Part shown: in pieces, positions 1,676 through 9,905 of the stretch
Numbering within the stretch: position 1 is the first letter of the stretch
Layout of the letters: the number at the start of each line of letters is the position of its first letter
DNA from: DASVDK01 sp036381125 [NCBI: Thermodesulfobacteriota bacterium]
GTDB lineage: Bacteria > DASVDK01
Direction: 5' to 3'
Length of the DNA stretch: 13,745 nucleotides
Assembly: GCA_036381125.1 (NCBI GenBank)
Contig: DASVDK010000185.1
Span: forward strand, 1-13,745
The notes under the pieces: generated by a model
Database searches by the model: none
Told to the model about the DNA's origin: nothing
What the model saw: only the letters and a program-made list of their open reading frames with translations
Translations under genes and position numbers: made by a program

Positions 1676-2983
1676 TTACCTCACGAGGCGCCGCATTCGC
1701 TGCACGAAGAAGCCGTCGAGGCCGCCGTCGGCGGGGTGCGTCACGAGGCGTGCCTCGGCCTCGTACTCCGGATGCCCGGCGAGGAACCCGTCGACGACGC
1801 CGGGCCCCTCCTCCGCCGTCGTCGTGCAGACCGAGTAGACGAGTCGGCCGCCCGGGCGGACCGCCGACGCCGCGACCTCGAGGATGGCCCGCTGGGTCGC
1901 GGCGAGCGGGGGAACGTCCTCGGGACGCCGCCGCCAGAGGATGTCGGGGTTGCGCCTGACGACGCCGAGCCCCGAGCAGGGGGCGTCGACCAGGACGGCG
2001 TCGTAGGGGCCGGCGAGCGGCGCCGGCAGGGGGGTCGTGGCGTCGTGCGCCGCCACCGTGACCCGATCGGCGACGCCGAGGCGGGCGACCGTCTCGCGAA
2101 CTCGCCCGAGGCGGGCGGGGTCCACGTCGAGCGCCACGACGCGCCCGTGCGGCCCGACGAGGTCCGCGAGATGACCGGTCTTGCCCCCCGGCGCCGCGCA
2201 GAGGTCGAGGACGCGGGCGCCGGTCGGAGGGTCGACGAGCCTGGCCACGAGCTGGGAGGCCTCGTCCTGCACGGCAAAGGCCCCCTCGGCGAACCCGGGG
2301 AGGGCCGCCACGCCGCCGGGCGGCAGCGATCCCGGCTCGATCACCACCGCGTCGGGCGCCACGCGCCCGGGGCGCGCGGCGACGCCCGCCGCGGAGAGTC
2401 GCGCGCGCAGGCGCTCCACCCCCTCCCGCGCCCGCAGGACCAGCGGCGCCGGCGAGGCGTCGGCGCCGAGCCGGCGCGCGGCCTCCTCGACCCCGTGCGC
2501 CGCCACCTCGCGCTCGACCATCCAGCGCGGGTGCGAGGTCTCGACGGCCAGGCGCTCGATCGGATCGGCCGGCAGCGGCACGTCCCCCCCTTCGTCCGCC
2601 ACGCGCCGCAGGAGCGCGTTCGCGAAGCCGGCCGCGCCCCGCGCGACCCGCTTGACGTGCTCCACCGCCTCGTCCACGGCGGCGTGGGCCGGGATGCGAT
2701 CGAGATGGCGGAGCTGGTAGGCCGCCAGGCGGAGGGCGGCGCGGACCTCCGGGTGGAGGGTGCGGAGCGGACGCTTCGCGAAGTACGAGAGGACGTGGTC
2801 GAGGCGCCCCTGCCAGCGCAGGGTGCCGTAGACCAGCTCGGTCAGGAGGGCGCGGTCGCGCGGGTCCGCGAGGGAGGCCAGGGCGGCCTCGAGGAGGCGG
2901 TCGGCGAAGGCGCCCCGCTCGACCCGCGCGAGGATCCGCACGGCCACGCCCCGTACGCCGGCGCGGCCGCGCGGCGGGCGCAT
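1676..2983 (-). CDS. rsmB: 16S rRNA (cytosine-967-C5)-methyltransferase RsmB
   Basis: Transfers a methyl group from S-adenosylmethionine to C967 of 16S rRNA. The 435-residue product matches the usual length of about 430. It has an N-terminal NusB-like RNA-binding domain (about 8-140), then a Rossmann methyltransferase domain with the SAM motif VLDLCAAPGGKTGHL (258-272), the motif IV cysteine Cys336 in DAPCSGLG, and the presumed nucleophile Cys386 in VYSVCTTTAEEG. The NPDILWRR segment typical of the family follows motif IV. The frame continues upstream through htpX, but that part is shadow sequence. The ATG at 2983 lies 8 bases past the htpX stop and gives the right length, although its ribosome site is weak; GTG codons near 2944 are alternatives. 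Translation may be coupled to htpX. Confidence 0.94.
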   Translation of the reverse strand: MRPPRGRAGVRGVAVRILARVERGAFADRLLEAALASLADPRDRALLTELVYGTLRWQGRLDHVLSYFAKRPLRTLHPEVRAALRLAAYQLRHLDRIPAHAAVDEAVEHVKRVARGAAGFANALLRRVADEGGDVPLPADPIERLAVETSHPRWMVEREVAAHGVEEAARRLGADASPAPLVLRAREGVERLRARLSAAGVAARPGRVAPDAVVIEPGSLPPGGVAALPGFAEGAFAVQDEASQLVARLVDPPTGARVLDLCAAPGGKTGHLADLVGPHGRVVALDVDPARLGRVRETVARLGVADRVTVAAHDATTPLPAPLAGPYDAVLVDAPCSGLGVVRRNPDILWRRRPEDVPPLAATQRAILEVAASAVRPGGRLVYSVCTTTAEEGPGVVDGFLAGHPEYEAEARLVTHPADGGLDGFFVQRMRRLVR

Positions 2984-2991
2984 GCCCGTCG

Positions 2992-3870
2992 TCAGACCCA
3001 GCTCGGCCGCACGCTCCCCATCGCCATCGCCTCGAGGCGCGCGACGCGCTCCTCGGTCGGCGGGTGGGTGCTGAAGAGCCGCGCGAGTCCGCCGCCCGCG
3101 AACGGGTGGACGATGAACATGTGCGCCGTCCCCTCGTTGCCCGCCGTCATCGGGATGCGGTGCGCGTAGGCGTCGATCTTCCGGAGCGCGTTCGCGAGCG
3201 AGAGCGGAGCCCCCGAGAGCCGCGCGCCGGTCGCATCGGCCGAGAACTCGCGCGTGCGGCTGATGGCCATCTGGACGATCATCGCCACGATCGGGGCGAT
3301 GATGATCGTGGCGAGCAGGCCGACGATGTTGCCGCCGTCGCCCTCCTCGTCCGAGCGCCCGCCGAGGCCGCCGAAGATCGCCCCCCACTGGAGGATGTTG
3401 GCGATCATCGAGATGGCGCCGGCGATCGTCGCGGCGACCGACGAGATGAGGATGTCGCGGTTCCTCACGTGACCGAGCTCGTGCGCGAGGACCCCGCGCA
3501 GCTCGTCGCGAGAGAGCAGGCGCATGATGCCCTGGGTCACCGCCACGGCCGCGTGCGACGGGCTCCTGCCGGTCGCGAAGGCGTTCGGCTGCTCCTGCGG
3601 GATGATGTAGAGACGGGGCATCGGCATGCCCGCGCGCCCCGCCAGCTCGCGGACCATGGCGTACAGCTCGGGGGCCTCGCGCTCGTCGACCTCGTGCGCC
3701 CCGTACATCTTGAGCACGATCTTGTCGCTGAACCAGTAGCTCACGAAGTTCATCGCGCCGGCGAACACGAGCGCGATGACCATGCCCTGCTGCCCGCCGA
3801 GCATCCCACCGATGGCGACCAGGATGCCGGTCAGGGTGGCCAGCAGGATGGTCGTCTTGATGGCGTTCAT
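2992..3870 (-). CDS. htpX: Zinc metalloprotease HtpX homologue
   Basis: Inner-membrane M48-family zinc protease that degrades misfolded membrane proteins with its active site facing the cytoplasm. The 292-residue length is typical. Two N-terminal membrane segments (about 5-22 and 28-47) precede the catalytic HELGH motif (His130, Glu131, His134), and the third zinc ligand is Glu208 in SRTREFSAD. Two more hydrophobic segments at about 141-163 and 183-203 flank an acidic glycine-rich loop (DEEGDGG). The [16 protein letters not shown] end is also diagnostic. The start has a good ribosome site, GGAGGAG (3875-3881), 4 bases before the ATG. The gene sits between fmt and rsmB, 54 bases after fmt, which places membrane protein quality control in a translation operon. 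No CpxR- or sigma-32-like site was seen upstream. Confidence 0.96.
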
Positions 3871-3924
3871 CGATCTCCTCCGGGAGGGACGCCCTGCCCC
3901 TCCACCACGAACATCGTTTCGAGG

Positions 3925-4863
3925 TTATGCAAGCGCCGTTCCGGGGCCGATCCGCGCGCCGCGGGCGAACTGCGCGCCCGACATCGGCTTTCGGCTCTCG
4001 GGCTGCACCTCGAGAAGGAGGAGGACCCCCTCCCCGGTCGCCACCGCGATGCCGTCCGGGACGACCGCCAGCACCTCGCCCGGCCTGCGGGCGGAGGCCT
4101 CGTAACCGTTCGAGACGTAACGAGTTCTCAGAATCTTCACCGGCCGGCCCGCCACCGCGGTCACCGCGCCCGGCCAGGGCTGGAACGCCCGCACCTGATC
4201 GTGGATCGCCCGGGCGGGCCGCGTCCAGTCGATCCGGGCGTGCTCGCGCGTGAGCATCGGCGCCAGCGTGGCAGCCGCGTCATCCTGGCGCTCGGCCGTC
4301 GCCGTGCCCGCGTCAAGCCGGCCGAGTACCTCGACGAGCGCCTCGGCGCCGAGCGACGCCAGGCGCTCGGTCACCGTCGGCGCGTCCTCGTCCGGGCCGA
4401 TCGGCGTTCGACGGACATGATACACGGGGCCGGTGTCGAGGCCGGCCTCCATGCGCATGATCGACACGCCGGTCTCGCGCTCGCCGTGGTAGATGGCCCA
4501 CTGGACCGGCGCCGCGCCGCGGTACTTCGGCAGCAGCGAGGCGTGGACGTTGACGCAGCCGTGCCGCGGGATGTCGAGGATGGCCTGCGGCAGGATCCTG
4601 CCGTAGGCGGCCACGACGATCACGTCGGGCGCCAGGGCGCGCAGGCGCGCGCGGGCCTCCTCGGTGCGGATCGTCTCGGGCTGCCAGACCGGCAGCCCGA
4701 GCTCGAGGGCGGCGACCTTGACCGGCGGCGGCGTCGGCGCCTGCCCGCGCCCCGCCGGCCGGTCGGGCTGGGTCACCACCACCGGCACCCGGTGCCCCGC
4801 CGCCACGACCGCCCTGAGCGACGGCACCGCGAAGGCCGCGGTGCCCATGAACGGGACGATCAC
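3925..4863 (-). CDS. fmt: Methionyl-tRNA formyltransferase
   Basis: Formylates the amino group of initiator Met-tRNA using 10-formyltetrahydrofolate. The 312-residue product is close to the 315 residues of the E. coli enzyme. The catalytic set is present: Asn105 and His107 in CVNVHASLLPKYRGAAP and Asp143 in GLDTG. The C-terminal tRNA-binding domain covers about 205-312. The frame is open to 5046, but homologues begin at the first beta strand, just before FMGTAAFAVPSL. The GTG at 4863 supplies that start and overlaps the def stop codon as GTGA, which suggests translational coupling. The next in-frame ATG would remove the first strand. The def-fmt pairing is classic: one enzyme adds the formyl group and the other removes it after translation starts. 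Confidence 0.95.
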   Translation of the reverse strand: MIVPFMGTAAFAVPSLRAVVAAGHRVPVVVTQPDRPAGRGQAPTPPPVKVAALELGLPVWQPETIRTEEARARLRALAPDVIVVAAYGRILPQAILDIPRHGCVNVHASLLPKYRGAAPVQWAIYHGERETGVSIMRMEAGLDTGPVYHVRRTPIGPDEDAPTVTERLASLGAEALVEVLGRLDAGTATAERQDDAAATLAPMLTREHARIDWTRPARAIHDQVRAFQPWPGAVTAVAGRPVKILRTRYVSNGYEASARRPGEVLAVVPDGIAVATGEGVLLLLEVQPESRKPMSGAQFARGARIGPGTALA

Positions 4864-5366
4864 TCGGCTGCGGCCAGGTACTTCCTGTACCGGCGACGGA
4901 AGAGGTCGCGCTTGACCGGCCCCAGGCGGTCGACGAAGAGCAGTCCGTTGAGGTGGTCGATCTCGTGCTGGAAGCAGCGCGAGAGGAGGTCGCGCCCGGT
5001 GATGACCTGCTCCTTGCCGTCGAGCCCGAGCCCCTTCACCGTGCACTCGGCGTAGCGGACGACCGGCGCCGAGTACTCCGGCACCGACAGGCAGCCCTCC
5101 TCCTCCTTGAGCTCCCCCTTCACCTCGACGATCTCCGGGTTGATCATCGTGATGAGCTGCCGGGGCTCGCCCTCGCCGTGACAGTCGGCCGTGAAGATCC
5201 GCAGCGATACCCCTACCTGATTGGCAGCCAGGCCGACGCCCGGAGCGGCGTACATGGTCTCGGCCATGTCACGGCAGAGCTGGACGATCTCGGGTGTGAT
5301 GCGCTCGACCGGCTCGGCCCGCCGCTTGAGCACGGGGTCGGGATAGTGGCGGATCGGAAGGATCAT
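4860..5366 (-). CDS. def: Peptide deformylase
   Basis: Removes the formyl group from the N-terminal methionine of nascent proteins at the ribosome, using a bound Fe(II) or Zn ion. The 168-residue product has all three family motifs in order: GVGLAANQVG (43-52), EEGCLSVP with metal ligand Cys92, and HEIDHLNG with ligands His134 and His138 and catalytic Glu135. Length is standard. The ATG at 5366 has GAGG (5372-5375) five to six bases upstream. A strong promoter lies at 5399-5427, giving a predicted leader of about 25 nt. The last codon overlaps the fmt GTG start. Confidence 0.97.
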   Translation of the reverse strand: MILPIRHYPDPVLKRRAEPVERITPEIVQLCRDMAETMYAAPGVGLAANQVGVSLRIFTADCHGEGEPRQLITMINPEIVEVKGELKEEEGCLSVPEYSAPVVRYAECTVKGLGLDGKEQVITGRDLLSRCFQHEIDHLNGLLFVDRLGPVKRDLFRRRYRKYLAAAE

Positions 5367-5398
5367 GCAGTCCTCAAATCCCTGTAATCAAAGGAGAA

Positions 5399-5423
5399 AT
5401 GATAGCGTGCCGGGCGGCCGGTG

Positions 5424-5427
<4 letters not shown>
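5399..5427 (-). promoter_or_regulatory. Sigma-70-type promoter for def-fmt-htpX-rsmB
   Basis: Leftward TTGACA (complement of 5422-5427, full consensus), a 17-base spacer and TATCAT (complement of 5399-5404, 5 of 6 consensus bases). The -35 box overlaps the priA stop codon at 5424-5426. The predicted start is near 5392 and leaves about 25 nt of leader before the def ATG. The stretch from 5370 to 5404 is clearly more A+T-rich than its surroundings. Transcription starting here would make the downstream genes independent of priA. Confidence 0.75.
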
Positions 5428-7967
<2,540 letters not shown>

Positions 7968-7975
7968 GGGCGCTG

Positions 7976-8005
7976 ATTGTGCCGCCCAGGGCCGGGCGCG
8001 GTCAA
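7976..8005 (-). promoter_or_regulatory. priA: Candidate priA promoter, nearly leaderless
   Basis: Leftward TTGACC (complement of 8000-8005), an 18-base spacer and CACAAT (complement of 7976-7981). Transcription would begin about 7969-7970, only 2-3 bases before the priA ATG. This agrees with the absence of a Shine-Dalgarno sequence. The -10 matches consensus at 4 of 6 positions. It is divergent from the tRNA promoter, with 28 bases between the two -35 boxes. Confidence 0.45.
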
Positions 8006-8033
8006 TCCGCCCGGCGCGAGCGGCGCCCCTCGC

Positions 8034-8062
8034 TTGACGCTCCCACGGGCGTCGGGTAGACT
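8034..8062 (+). promoter_or_regulatory. Promoter for the tRNA-Ala transcript
   Basis: TTGACG (8034-8039), a 17-base spacer and TAGACT (8057-8062) give a good rightward sigma-70-type promoter. The predicted start is near 8069, about 210 bases before the mature tRNA 5' end. No other promoter is visible closer to the tRNA. Confidence 0.6.
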
Positions 8063-8088
8063 TTCCGCGCGTTTCCAGCCGCGTGGTA

Positions 8089-8105
8089 CCGGCCGCGAGC
8101 CGTTG
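8089..8105 (+). repeat. Partial copy (17 bp) of the tRNA-leader repeat
   Basis: CCGGCCGCGAGCCGTTG, identical to the last 17 bases of the 43-bp repeat. It directly abuts the first full copy. With the two following bases the match to 8132-8150 is 19 bp, giving a tandem period of 43 bp at this end. Confidence 0.9.
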
Positions 8106-8148
8106 CGGGTTCATCCCGGGCGGAGCGGACGCCGGCCGCGAGCCGTTG
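8106..8148 (+). repeat. 43-bp direct repeat, copy 1
   Basis: Starts CGGGTTCATCCCGGGCGGAG and ends CGCGAGCCGTTG. It is identical over all 43 bases to 8231-8273 (period 125). The CGGG-TTCAT-CCCG core can form a 4-bp stem here. The unit length is not a multiple of three, and the repeat lies inside the predicted tRNA leader. Confidence 0.95.
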
Positions 8149-8198
8149 CGAGAGGTGTGGCGTGAGCCGCACCGGGAGGCGAGCGGCCACCGGTGGTT

Positions 8199-8217
8199 GG
8201 CGGCCCGCAGGGCCGCC
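8199..8217 (+). other. Strong hairpin in the tRNA leader (8-bp stem)
   Basis: GGCGGCCC (8199-8206), loop GCA, GGGCCGCC (8210-8217): a perfect 8-bp stem with a 3-nt loop between the two 43-bp repeats. A 10-bp palindrome, CCACCGGTGG (8187-8196), lies just before it. No U tract follows, so it is more likely a structured leader element than a terminator. Confidence 0.6.
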
Positions 8218-8227
8218 GACGAGCGGA

Positions 8228-8246
8228 GCCCGGGTTCATCCCGGGC
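8228..8246 (+). other. Strong hairpin formed by repeat copy 2 (7-bp stem)
   Basis: GCCCGGG (8228-8234), loop TTCAT, CCCGGGC (8240-8246). The stem is longer than in copy 1 because the flanking GCC adds pairs to the repeat core. It lies 32 bases before the tRNA. Confidence 0.6.
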
Positions 8247-8273
8247 GGAGCGGACGCCGGCCGCGAGCCGTTG
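8231..8273 (+). repeat. 43-bp direct repeat, copy 2, next to tRNA-Ala
   Basis: Identical to 8106-8148. It ends five bases before the first base of the mature tRNA, so RNase P would cut almost at its edge if the leader is transcribed. The position suggests a dispersed repeat inserted at, or duplicated beside, a tRNA gene. Confidence 0.95.
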
Positions 8274-8278
8274 GAAGT

Positions 8279-8354
8279 GGGGCTGTAGCTCAGCTGGGAG
8301 AGCGCTGCGTTCGCAACGCAGAGGTCGGCGGTTCGATCCCGCTCAGCTCCACCA
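8279..8354 (+). tRNA. tRNA-Ala, anticodon CGC
   Basis: A complete 76-nt cloverleaf. Acceptor arms GGGGCTG (8279-8285) and CAGCTCC (8344-8350) pair with a single G3:U70 wobble, the identity determinant for alanyl-tRNA synthetase. D stem GCTC/GAGC (8288-8291, 8300-8303). Anticodon stem CTGCG/CGCAG with loop TTCGCAA, so the anticodon is CGC at 8312-8314 (reads GCG codons). T stem 8327-8331 with 8339-8343, loop TTCGATC. Discriminator A at 8351 and genome-encoded CCA at 8352-8354. No mismatches. Confidence 0.98.
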
Positions 8355-8392
8355 CCTCTCTTCTCCTCCTCCAGGTCCTCCCCTTCTCCTCC
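8355..8392 (+). terminator. C-rich, G-poor tract after the tRNA, possible Rho site
   Basis: Two pyrimidine runs (18 and 17 bases) separated by AGG, sharing the 10-mer CTTCTCCTCC at 8360-8369 and 8383-8392. Unstructured C-rich, G-poor RNA is what Rho loads on, and no hairpin-plus-U terminator is present after this tRNA. The composition is plain; the role is inference. Confidence 0.3.
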
Positions 8393-8512
8393 GGGTCGAG
8401 CGCGTTCACCCCCTGGCGCACGTGACGTTACGAGCGTCGGCCCTGGCACCGGCGTGCGTCCTCGACCGGCGTCGATGGGGGACGGCGAGGGGCCGGGCGC
8501 CCGTGGCGTCGG

Positions 8513-8808: not shown

Positions 8809-9351
8809 ATGGCCGTGGGTTCGTCGCTCCTCGACCGGCCGAGCGTCGCCTGGCGGGTCTTGCGGACAGCCTGCCTCGTCGCGCGCCTGCGCTGCCCGTC
8901 CTGCGGCCTCGGCCGCATGGGGGCCGGCGGCCTCGCCGTCCACCTGCGCTGCCCGGTCTGCGGGGTCGTCTTCGAGCGCGACCCCGGCGAGGTCGCGGGC
9001 GGCATCTGGGTGAACTCCATGGTCACGACGCTCGGCATCTGCGGGCTCGCGAGCTACCTGGAGTTCTTCACCGCCCTGCCGCGCACGCTCCTCACGCCGC
9101 TCGTCGTCCTCTTCGCCGCCGTGTTCCCCGTCGCCTTCTACCGGCACTCGCGCGCCGTCTGGATCGGCGTCCTCCACCTGGCCGGCCTGGTGCATCGCGA
9201 CGAGGCGGCCGACCCCGAGCCGGTCATCCGCCCCTGGCCGCCGGACGGCCCCGGCGGAGGCGGCCCCACGACCGGCGCCGAGTCGGCCCGCGAGCCGGTC
9301 TTCGTCGGGACCGGCCGCCCCCTCGACGGCCCGCGCGGCGGCGCGTCATGA
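8809..9351 (+). CDS. DUF983 family zinc-ribbon membrane protein
   Basis: 180 residues. An N-terminal zinc ribbon has two CxxC pairs (Cys29/32 in RCPSCGLGRMG and Cys48/51 in RCPVCGVVFERDPGE), followed by two membrane segments (about 68-88 and 95-112). This is the DUF983 arrangement. A hydrophilic tail rich in Pro, Gly and acidic residues (about 131-180) extends past the usual domain end. No function is established for the family; members are often found near cytochrome oxidase genes, but none is here. The ATG at 8809 is the only plausible start and has at best a distant GAGG ribosome site. The stop codon overlaps the next start as ATGA, so the two genes are translationally linked. Confidence 0.85.
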   Translation: MAVGSSLLDRPSVAWRVLRTACLVARLRCPSCGLGRMGAGGLAVHLRCPVCGVVFERDPGEVAGGIWVNSMVTTLGICGLASYLEFFTALPRTLLTPLVVLFAAVFPVAFYRHSRAVWIGVLHLAGLVHRDEAADPEPVIRPWPPDGPGGGGPTTGAESAREPVFVGTGRPLDGPRGGAS

Positions 9352-9905
9352 CGCGGCGCGCCACGATCGCCGCGCGCCTCCGGCGGCTCGCGGCCGCCAT
9401 CCGCCCGAGGCCGCTCGCCTCCTGCGCGGCTCTCGCCGCACTGCTGGTCGCCGGTTGCGCGAGTCACCCGATCTCCGAGCCGCTCCGCGCGGCGGCGAAG
9501 GACCAGCCGCCGTTCGCGGCGCTGGCGGCCGATCCGGCGGCGTACGTGGGCCGGGCGGTCGTGCTCTCGGGCATCGTGCTCGGCGCCTTCCCGGGACCGA
9601 GCGGGGGGACGGTGCTCGAGGTGCTCCAGACGCCGGCCGACGGCGCCGGCCGTCCCGGCGACCCCGACCGATCGCAGGGGCGCTTCCTCGCGGTGGACGC
9701 GAGACGTCTCGACCCGGCGATCTACGCGCCGGGCAGACGGGTGGCCGTCGGCGGCGAGGTGGTGCGGACGGAGACGCGCGAGGTGCCGGGCGGCGGAACG
9801 ATCACCTACCCGGTCGTCGAGGCACGCGAGCTGCACCTCTTCCCGGTGGAGCGGCGGGGTGGCCCGCCCGTGAACCTCGGGATCGGGATCGGCATCGGGT
9901 TCTAG
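9348..9905 (+). CDS. slp: Slp family outer-membrane lipoprotein
   Basis: 185 residues. A long basic N-terminus (about 22 residues with many Arg) precedes a hydrophobic stretch and the lipobox VAGC, making Cys37 the lipidated residue. The +2 residue is Ala rather than Asp, which predicts sorting to the outer membrane. The mature part matches the Slp starvation-lipoprotein family (ISEPLRAAA, then DPAAYVGRAVVLSGIVLG, GGTVLEVLQTP, GRFLAV, LDPAIYAPGRRVAVGGEV, TYPVVEARELHLFP). The C-terminus ends in a GIGIGIGF repeat. The E. coli member is induced in stationary phase and helps resist acid metabolites; whether this holds here is unknown. Its stop codon overlaps that of the opposing GAF gene. Confidence 0.88.
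   Translation: MTRRATIAARLRRLAAAIRPRPLASCAALAALLVAGCASHPISEPLRAAAKDQPPFAALAADPAAYVGRAVVLSGIVLGAFPGPSGGTVLEVLQTPADGAGRPGDPDRSQGRFLAVDARRLDPAIYAPGRRVAVGGEVVRTETREVPGGGTITYPVVEARELHLFPVERRGGPPVNLGIGIGIGF

What the first reader, a model, noticed from the sequence alone, without database searches (positions are those of the whole stretch)
8063..8278. Repeat-bearing, highly structured leader in front of tRNA-Ala(CGC)
Seen directly: two identical 43-bp direct repeats (8106-8148, 8231-8273) plus a 17-bp partial copy, two near-perfect hairpins (8199-8217, 8228-8246) and a 10-bp palindrome, all between a good promoter (8034-8062) and the first base of the tRNA. The second repeat stops 5 bases before the mature 5' end. 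A leader of about 210 nt is long for a single tRNA. It may be a dispersed REP-like element that targets tRNA genes, a small RNA released by RNase P processing, or a relic of a duplication.
Basis: partly seen in the sequence, partly recalled or inferred. Interest (0 to 1): 0.62.

Follow-up and report, generated by a model that had tools for sequence, protein, structure and literature searches.

The report
Repeat-swollen leader before an alanine tRNA
In a GC-rich, so far unplaced bacterium, the stretch between a normal-looking tRNA promoter and an alanine tRNA gene has probably grown by about 200 bases of repeated and hairpin-forming sequence, and a diverged inverted copy of part of it lies inside a neighbouring gene; it is most likely a small genomic repeat that lodged in a tolerant place, not a new kind of system.

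Summary
Two exact 43-bp repeats (8106-8148, 8231-8273), a partial copy, the named hairpins and the palindrome lie between a tRNA-type promoter (TTGACG-17-TAGACT, 8034-8062) and an intact tRNA-Ala(CGC). The 43-bp pair is exceptional: the longest exact direct repeat upstream of 60 comparator tRNA-Ala(CGC) genes is 12 nt. One comparator has the same promoter hexamers 17 nt before its tRNA, against 216 nt here, so the leader looks like an expansion between promoter and tRNA.

New here: folding stability sits in the 82-nt insert between the repeats (8149-8230), not in the 43-mer. A diverged inverted copy of that insert (81% over 64 nt) lies at 9376-9447 (-), near the start of an Slp-family lipoprotein ORF; none of 500 shuffles of the insert reached its score. 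The leader thus contains a small repeat with at least two copies in 14 kb: a dispersed REP/MITE-like element or a local inverted duplication.

The window's own genome and near relatives could not be reached. Genome-wide copy number, tRNA targeting, conservation and a stable sRNA therefore stay untested. Most likely it is a passively carried pre-tRNA leader that RNase P removes.

The parts
8034..8062 (+). Sigma-70-type promoter-like site TTGACG-17-TAGACT, followed by a GC-rich stretch; inferred start near 8069
   Evidence: mean 0.0 in 50 shuffles; same hexamers and spacing 17 nt before the tRNA in comparator L126. Start point is inferred
8089..8107 (+). Partial copy of the 3' end of the 43-bp repeat
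   Evidence: family D2
8106..8148 (+). 43-bp repeat R, copy 1
   Evidence: not structured itself (z -0.43)
8154..8219 (+). Inter-repeat two-hairpin element, copy A (whole insert 8149-8230)
   Evidence: insert z -5.15 and -5.40; core alone z -3.35, 1 of 300 shuffles as good; diverged copy at 9376-9447
8154..8173 (+). Hairpin H1, 8 pairs including one G-U, GUGA loop
   Evidence: folds
8187..8196 (.). 10-bp palindrome CCACCGGTGG
   Evidence: sequence
8197..8219 (+).
8228..8246 (+). Hairpin H3 GCCCGGG-UUCAU-CCCGGGC, overlaps the start of R copy 2
8231..8273 (+). 43-bp repeat R, copy 2, ending 5 nt before the tRNA
8279..8354 (+). tRNA-Ala(CGC), CCA encoded
9376..9447 (-). Diverged inverted copy B of the inter-repeat element; its right part also matches 8250-8275 (end of R copy 2)
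   Evidence: cmsearch 28.7-28.8 bits; 81% over 64 nt, 0 of 500 shuffles of the insert; 22 of 26 match to 8250-8275, 0 of 500 shuffles against the 140-nt neighbourhood
9348..9905 (+). Slp-family lipoprotein ORF; copy B spans its codons 10-34, ahead of the lipobox-like cysteine codon 37
   Evidence: Pfam PF03843, E 3.9e-26; codon numbers; signal peptide judged by eye
5424..7967 (-). priA, divergent neighbour

Best explanation
The region is an enlarged 5' leader of a single tRNA-Ala(CGC) gene. A normal tRNA promoter once stood close to the tRNA. A small GC-rich, two-hairpin repeat, present elsewhere in this genome in diverged form, came to lie between them, and local direct duplication (43-bp units, 125-bp spacing) lengthened it further. 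RNA polymerase starts near 8069 and reads about 209 nt of leader into the tRNA. Leader and tRNA are predicted to fold apart, and RNase P cuts the leader off at 8279. The leader is probably carried passively because RNase P mainly reads the tRNA, not the leader. Shown: repeats, predicted structure, promoter-like site, second copy. Inferred: transcription start, order of events, RNase P removal, lack of selected function.
For: Exact 43-bp pair plus partial copy. No comparable repeat upstream of 60 comparator tRNA-Ala(CGC) genes. The same promoter hexamers stand 17 nt before the tRNA in L126 and 216 nt here; 17 of the 21 comparators with any promoter-like site have one within 76 nt. Insert 8149-8230 is unusually foldable (z -5.15, 0 of 200 shuffles; lowest of 334 tiles is -3.32). 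Diverged inverted copy B: 51.1 bits against a maximum of 38.3 in 500 shuffles, 34.0 as best in 1.19 Mb of other loci, and no inverted best match of 45 bits or more among 4890 tiles of 19 other GC-rich loci. The predicted fold of leader plus tRNA has no pairs between the two.
Against: Only two copies of the element are seen, 1.2 kb apart and inverted, which a local inverted duplication would explain without a dispersed family. With the whole leader as query the same place scores 54.0 bits and 1 of 500 shuffles reaches that. Copy B folds only modestly (z -1.91, 13 of 300 shuffles as good; core -2.58, 5 of 300), and core A alone gives z -3.35. The insert bounds were chosen after seeing the fold; a grid tile starting at 8160 gives only -2.95, and one of 63 longer tiles elsewhere nearly equals the whole leader. 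38 of 59 comparators show no promoter-like site and 4 show only distant ones. The predicted minimum-energy fold of the tRNA is not the cloverleaf, with or without the leader. No data on transcription, and no relative close enough to show the state before expansion.
Confidence: 0.5

Rival explanations
1. Local inverted and direct duplication only: the 5' end of the lipoprotein gene or the leader was copied once into the other by a template switch between sites 1.2 kb apart. There is no dispersed family.
For: Only two copies seen, inverted and close; no third copy reaches E 0.005 in the window apart from A and B.
Against: The copies have diverged to 81%, so the event is old, while both hairpins stay nearly paired (97.1% of cells; that alignment is fitted to the structure, and its shuffle control is uninformative with two rows). 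B's right part matches both H2 and the end of R, a mosaic not expected of one simple copy.
Confidence: 0.28
2. The leader is a functional non-coding RNA (sRNA, sponge or regulator) co-transcribed with the tRNA and released by RNase P.
For: Strong predicted structure, H1 with a GNRA-type loop in both copies (GUGA, GAGA), a tRNA-type promoter and a leader that folds apart from the tRNA.
Against: No Rfam family at gathering score; no match at E 1e-6 in 282, 297 and 297 genomes of three groups, though with few candidates scored per genome and no positive control; internal exact duplication suggests recent neutral growth.
Confidence: 0.12
3. A tRNA-targeting mobile repeat: the element inserts preferentially in front of tRNA genes.
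For: The second repeat ends 5 nt before the tRNA.
Against: Its other copy lies in a protein ORF; no significant hit near another tRNA, but the own genome was not searchable.
Confidence: 0.06
4. Relic of a tandem tRNA cluster: R is a spacer and the 76-nt slot between the R copies is a dead tRNA.
For: Register fits: R start to tRNA start is 48 nt, and spacing 125 leaves a slot of 76 nt plus 1 (from coordinates).
Against: The slot does not resemble the tRNA beyond chance (116 of 1000 shuffles as good), nor does R (294 of 500) or the leader as a whole (309 of 500); no weak tRNA hit in the slot in Rfam at E up to 10.
Confidence: 0.04

Closest known systems
REP / REPIN-type small palindromic repeats (GTAG- and CGTC-tagged families, PMC3733652; abstract, outline and search passages seen)
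   Same: Short, GC-rich here, hairpin-forming, more than one copy in opposite orientations, one copy inside an ORF
   Different: Element is about 65-80 nt with two hairpins and diverged copies; high copy number and an associated transposase were not testable; no GTAG tag, and CGTC beside H2 in copy A only
Stem-loop-containing repeat families of bacterial genomes (PMC2267715; abstract and outline seen)
   Same: Repeated sequence with predicted stem-loops
   Different: Family membership needs many genome copies, not testable here
rtT repeats at E. coli tyrT (recalled; one search found no paper)
   Same: Direct repeats attached to a tRNA transcription unit
   Different: As recalled, those repeats are downstream and contain the tRNA 3' end; here they are upstream and do not resemble the tRNA beyond chance
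tRNA-transcript spacer sRNAs such as the 3'ETS of leuZ (recalled)
   Same: Non-tRNA part of a tRNA transcript
   Different: As recalled, 3' side with known targets; here 5' side and no expression data

Membership tests
REP/REPIN-type repeat | Small palindromic unit | tested here: met
   H1 and H2 hairpins of 8-10 pairs; the whole element is longer than the 20-40 bp given in PMC3733652
REP/REPIN-type repeat | High copy number in the genome | not testable with these tools
   No whole genome held for the window; two copies in 13.7 kb
REP/REPIN-type repeat | GTAG or CGTC tag at one end | tested here: inconclusive
   no GTAG or CTAC in the leader; CGTC on the minus strand (GACG at 8128, 8218, 8253), the one at 8218 beside H2; none near copy B (9360-9460)
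REP/REPIN-type repeat | Dedicated RAYT transposase (GTAG type) | not testable with these tools
   Genome not held; the five window proteins scanned in Pfam show none
Known structured RNA family (Rfam) | Covariance-model match at gathering score | tested here: not met
   Only tRNA passes; best other match by bits in 7960-8480 is 19.1 against a cut-off of 41.2
tRNA pseudogene between the repeats | Similarity to the tRNA beyond chance | tested here: not met
   116 of 1000 shuffles align as well

The most novel reading that the evidence does not exclude
A previously undescribed family of mobile two-hairpin RNA/DNA elements with GNRA-type loops that inserts between tRNA promoters and tRNAs and into signal-peptide codons, and whose tRNA-linked copy is released by RNase P as a stable regulatory RNA.
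Probability: 0.08. Interest if true: 0.6.

Novelty: new member of a known kind. Interest (0 to 1): 0.3.

Why it matters
If the element is dispersed, it is a clear case of a small repeat pushing a promoter about 200 bp away from an intact tRNA, and of another copy supplying codons near the start of a lipoprotein gene. That would test how much a bacterial pre-tRNA leader can grow before processing suffers. If it is only a local duplication it is a curiosity.

Tried and rejected
Dead-tRNA slot: rejected. Leader hits in 35 genomes (4 places in 3 genomes at E up to 0.001; no tRNA in those loci) and exact 18-19-mers in viral contigs (2 and 6 stretches; no tRNA in any of the 8): judged chance. (plasmids, leader plus tRNA as query) matched 377 records; the 20 listed cover the tRNA with at most about 35 nt of leader. 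With the insert alone there is no plasmid match, and with the leader no phage or E. coli match. Viral-contig scans with PriA, the GAF kinase and two patterns found nothing. The single-sequence model gave 2 of 235 genomes (32.3 and 32.0 bits, no tRNA in the loci), and the two-sequence model 1 of 297 (29.4 bits, no tRNA): treated as background, though these scores equal or exceed copy B's 28.8; B differs in being found within 13.7 kb. The MAFFT alignment of A and B places H2 differently from the BLAST and cmsearch alignments. Two-sequence covariation is uninformative (500 of 500 shuffles equal, no two-sided change).

The PriA tree puts the window near Binatota/Myxococcota rows with no starred set around it. 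In further genomes HtpX reached at most 66% and PriA at most 656 bits at 45%. I recalled Rokubacteria as a guess; it was not tested. Paper searches listed nothing about such a leader, but for some only 10 of 945 and 8 of 468 papers were listed; this is not proof of absence.

Limits: comparators are 60 of the 121 matching genomes (83 of 140 and 38 of 148), those for which loci were returned; all 60 are tRNA-Ala(CGC) by ARAGORN; one (L135) has only 127 nt upstream. They come from other groups than the window, and some are AT-rich. Candidates scored per genome, in the rows listed: up to 2, 15, 19, 23. The test of R against copy B used a 140-nt neighbourhood picked after one search had shown the match. 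One search looked only at each tile's best match, so weaker inverted ones could be hidden.

Full report
What is there. The tRNA-Ala(CGC) at 8279-8354 is intact. Upstream, between it and a promoter-like site at 8034-8062, lie two exact 43-bp repeats, a partial copy, three hairpins and a 10-bp palindrome. The neighbour on the other side is a divergent priA.

Is it more than chance? The 43-mer is the only 43-nt exact repeat of the window. In 60 comparator loci, all tRNA-Ala(CGC) by ARAGORN, drawn from two groups of genomes (83 of 140 and 38 of 148 genomes matched, 30 loci of each taken), the longest exact direct repeat in up to 220 nt upstream was 12 nt. The leader folds better than all 200 shuffles, though one of 63 tiles of that size elsewhere in the window comes close (z -3.39 against -3.63). 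The stability comes from the insert between the repeats: 8149-8230 has z -5.15, while the 43-mer has z -0.43. Of 334 tiles of 82 nt over the window the lowest z is -3.32. The insert bounds were chosen afterwards: a tile starting at 8160 gives -2.95, and the core 8154-8219 gives -3.35.

Promoter position. A simple promoter scan of 350 nt upstream was possible in 59 of the 60 comparators. It found a site in 21; in 17 of these a site ends within 76 nt of the tRNA, and in 4 the only sites were farther (133 to 277 nt). One comparator, L126, has the same two hexamers and spacing, 17 nt from the tRNA. Here the distance is 216 nt. I infer that the window's promoter is an ordinary tRNA promoter and that the leader grew between it and the gene.

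A second copy. A covariance model built from the insert alone found a second place in the window, 9376-9447 on the minus strand (28.8 bits; 28.7 with filters off). BLAST aligns it at 81% over 64 nt and 51.1 bits; 500 shuffles of the insert reach at most 38.3. With the whole leader as query the place scores 54.0 bits and 1 of 500 shuffles reaches it, so the signal is in the insert. In 177 other loci (1.19 Mb) the best match of the insert is 34.0 bits. In 4890 tiles of 19 other GC-rich loci no tile's best within-locus match was inverted with 45 bits or more, while 47 tiles had direct ones of 51 bits or more. Background in other genomes is not zero: the model reaches 32 bits in 2 of 235 genomes. 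The H1 loop is GUGA in one copy and GAGA in the other, and the pairs are nearly all kept (97.1% of cells), but that alignment is fitted to the structure and two sequences cannot show covariation. B's right part also matches 8250-8275, the end of the second 43-mer, in 22 of 26 positions, with 0 of 500 shuffles as good against that 140-nt neighbourhood. B spans codons 10-34 of an Slp-family lipoprotein ORF, ahead of a lipobox-like cysteine at codon 37. On its own B folds only modestly (z -1.91).

What could not be done. No genome is held for the window, and no near relative was reached. The leader gave no match at E 1e-6 or better in 282, 297 and 297 genomes of three groups; the tool itself notes that an empty answer without a positive control shows nothing.

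How it probably works. Transcription from 8034-8062 would give a precursor with about 209 nt of leader. In the predicted fold of 8063-8354 the leader and the tRNA share no pairs, so RNase P could act normally; the predicted fold of the tRNA part is not the cloverleaf in either case, a known weakness of such predictions. The exact duplication points to recent, probably neutral growth. A stable sRNA is possible but unsupported.

Verdict. I file it as a new member of a known kind (small structured bacterial repeats) with modest interest.

Noticed in passing
9348-9458: The Slp-family lipoprotein ORF has 36 residues before its lipobox-like cysteine (by eye), and copy B covers codons 10-34; an in-frame insertion of the element into a signal peptide is possible.
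   Followed up: partly
8861-8968: A 51-nt direct repeat (75%) inside the DUF983 ORF, seemingly a doubled CPxCG-type motif.
   Followed up: no
7976-8005: Divergent promoter-like site (-) ahead of priA, 8 nt from the assumed start codon, suggesting a near-leaderless priA transcript.
   Followed up: no
1676-7967: Gene order priA-def-fmt-htpX, then an rsmB-like ORF (named from its translation by recall, not scanned); priA-def-fmt-htpX is shared with L101.
   Followed up: partly
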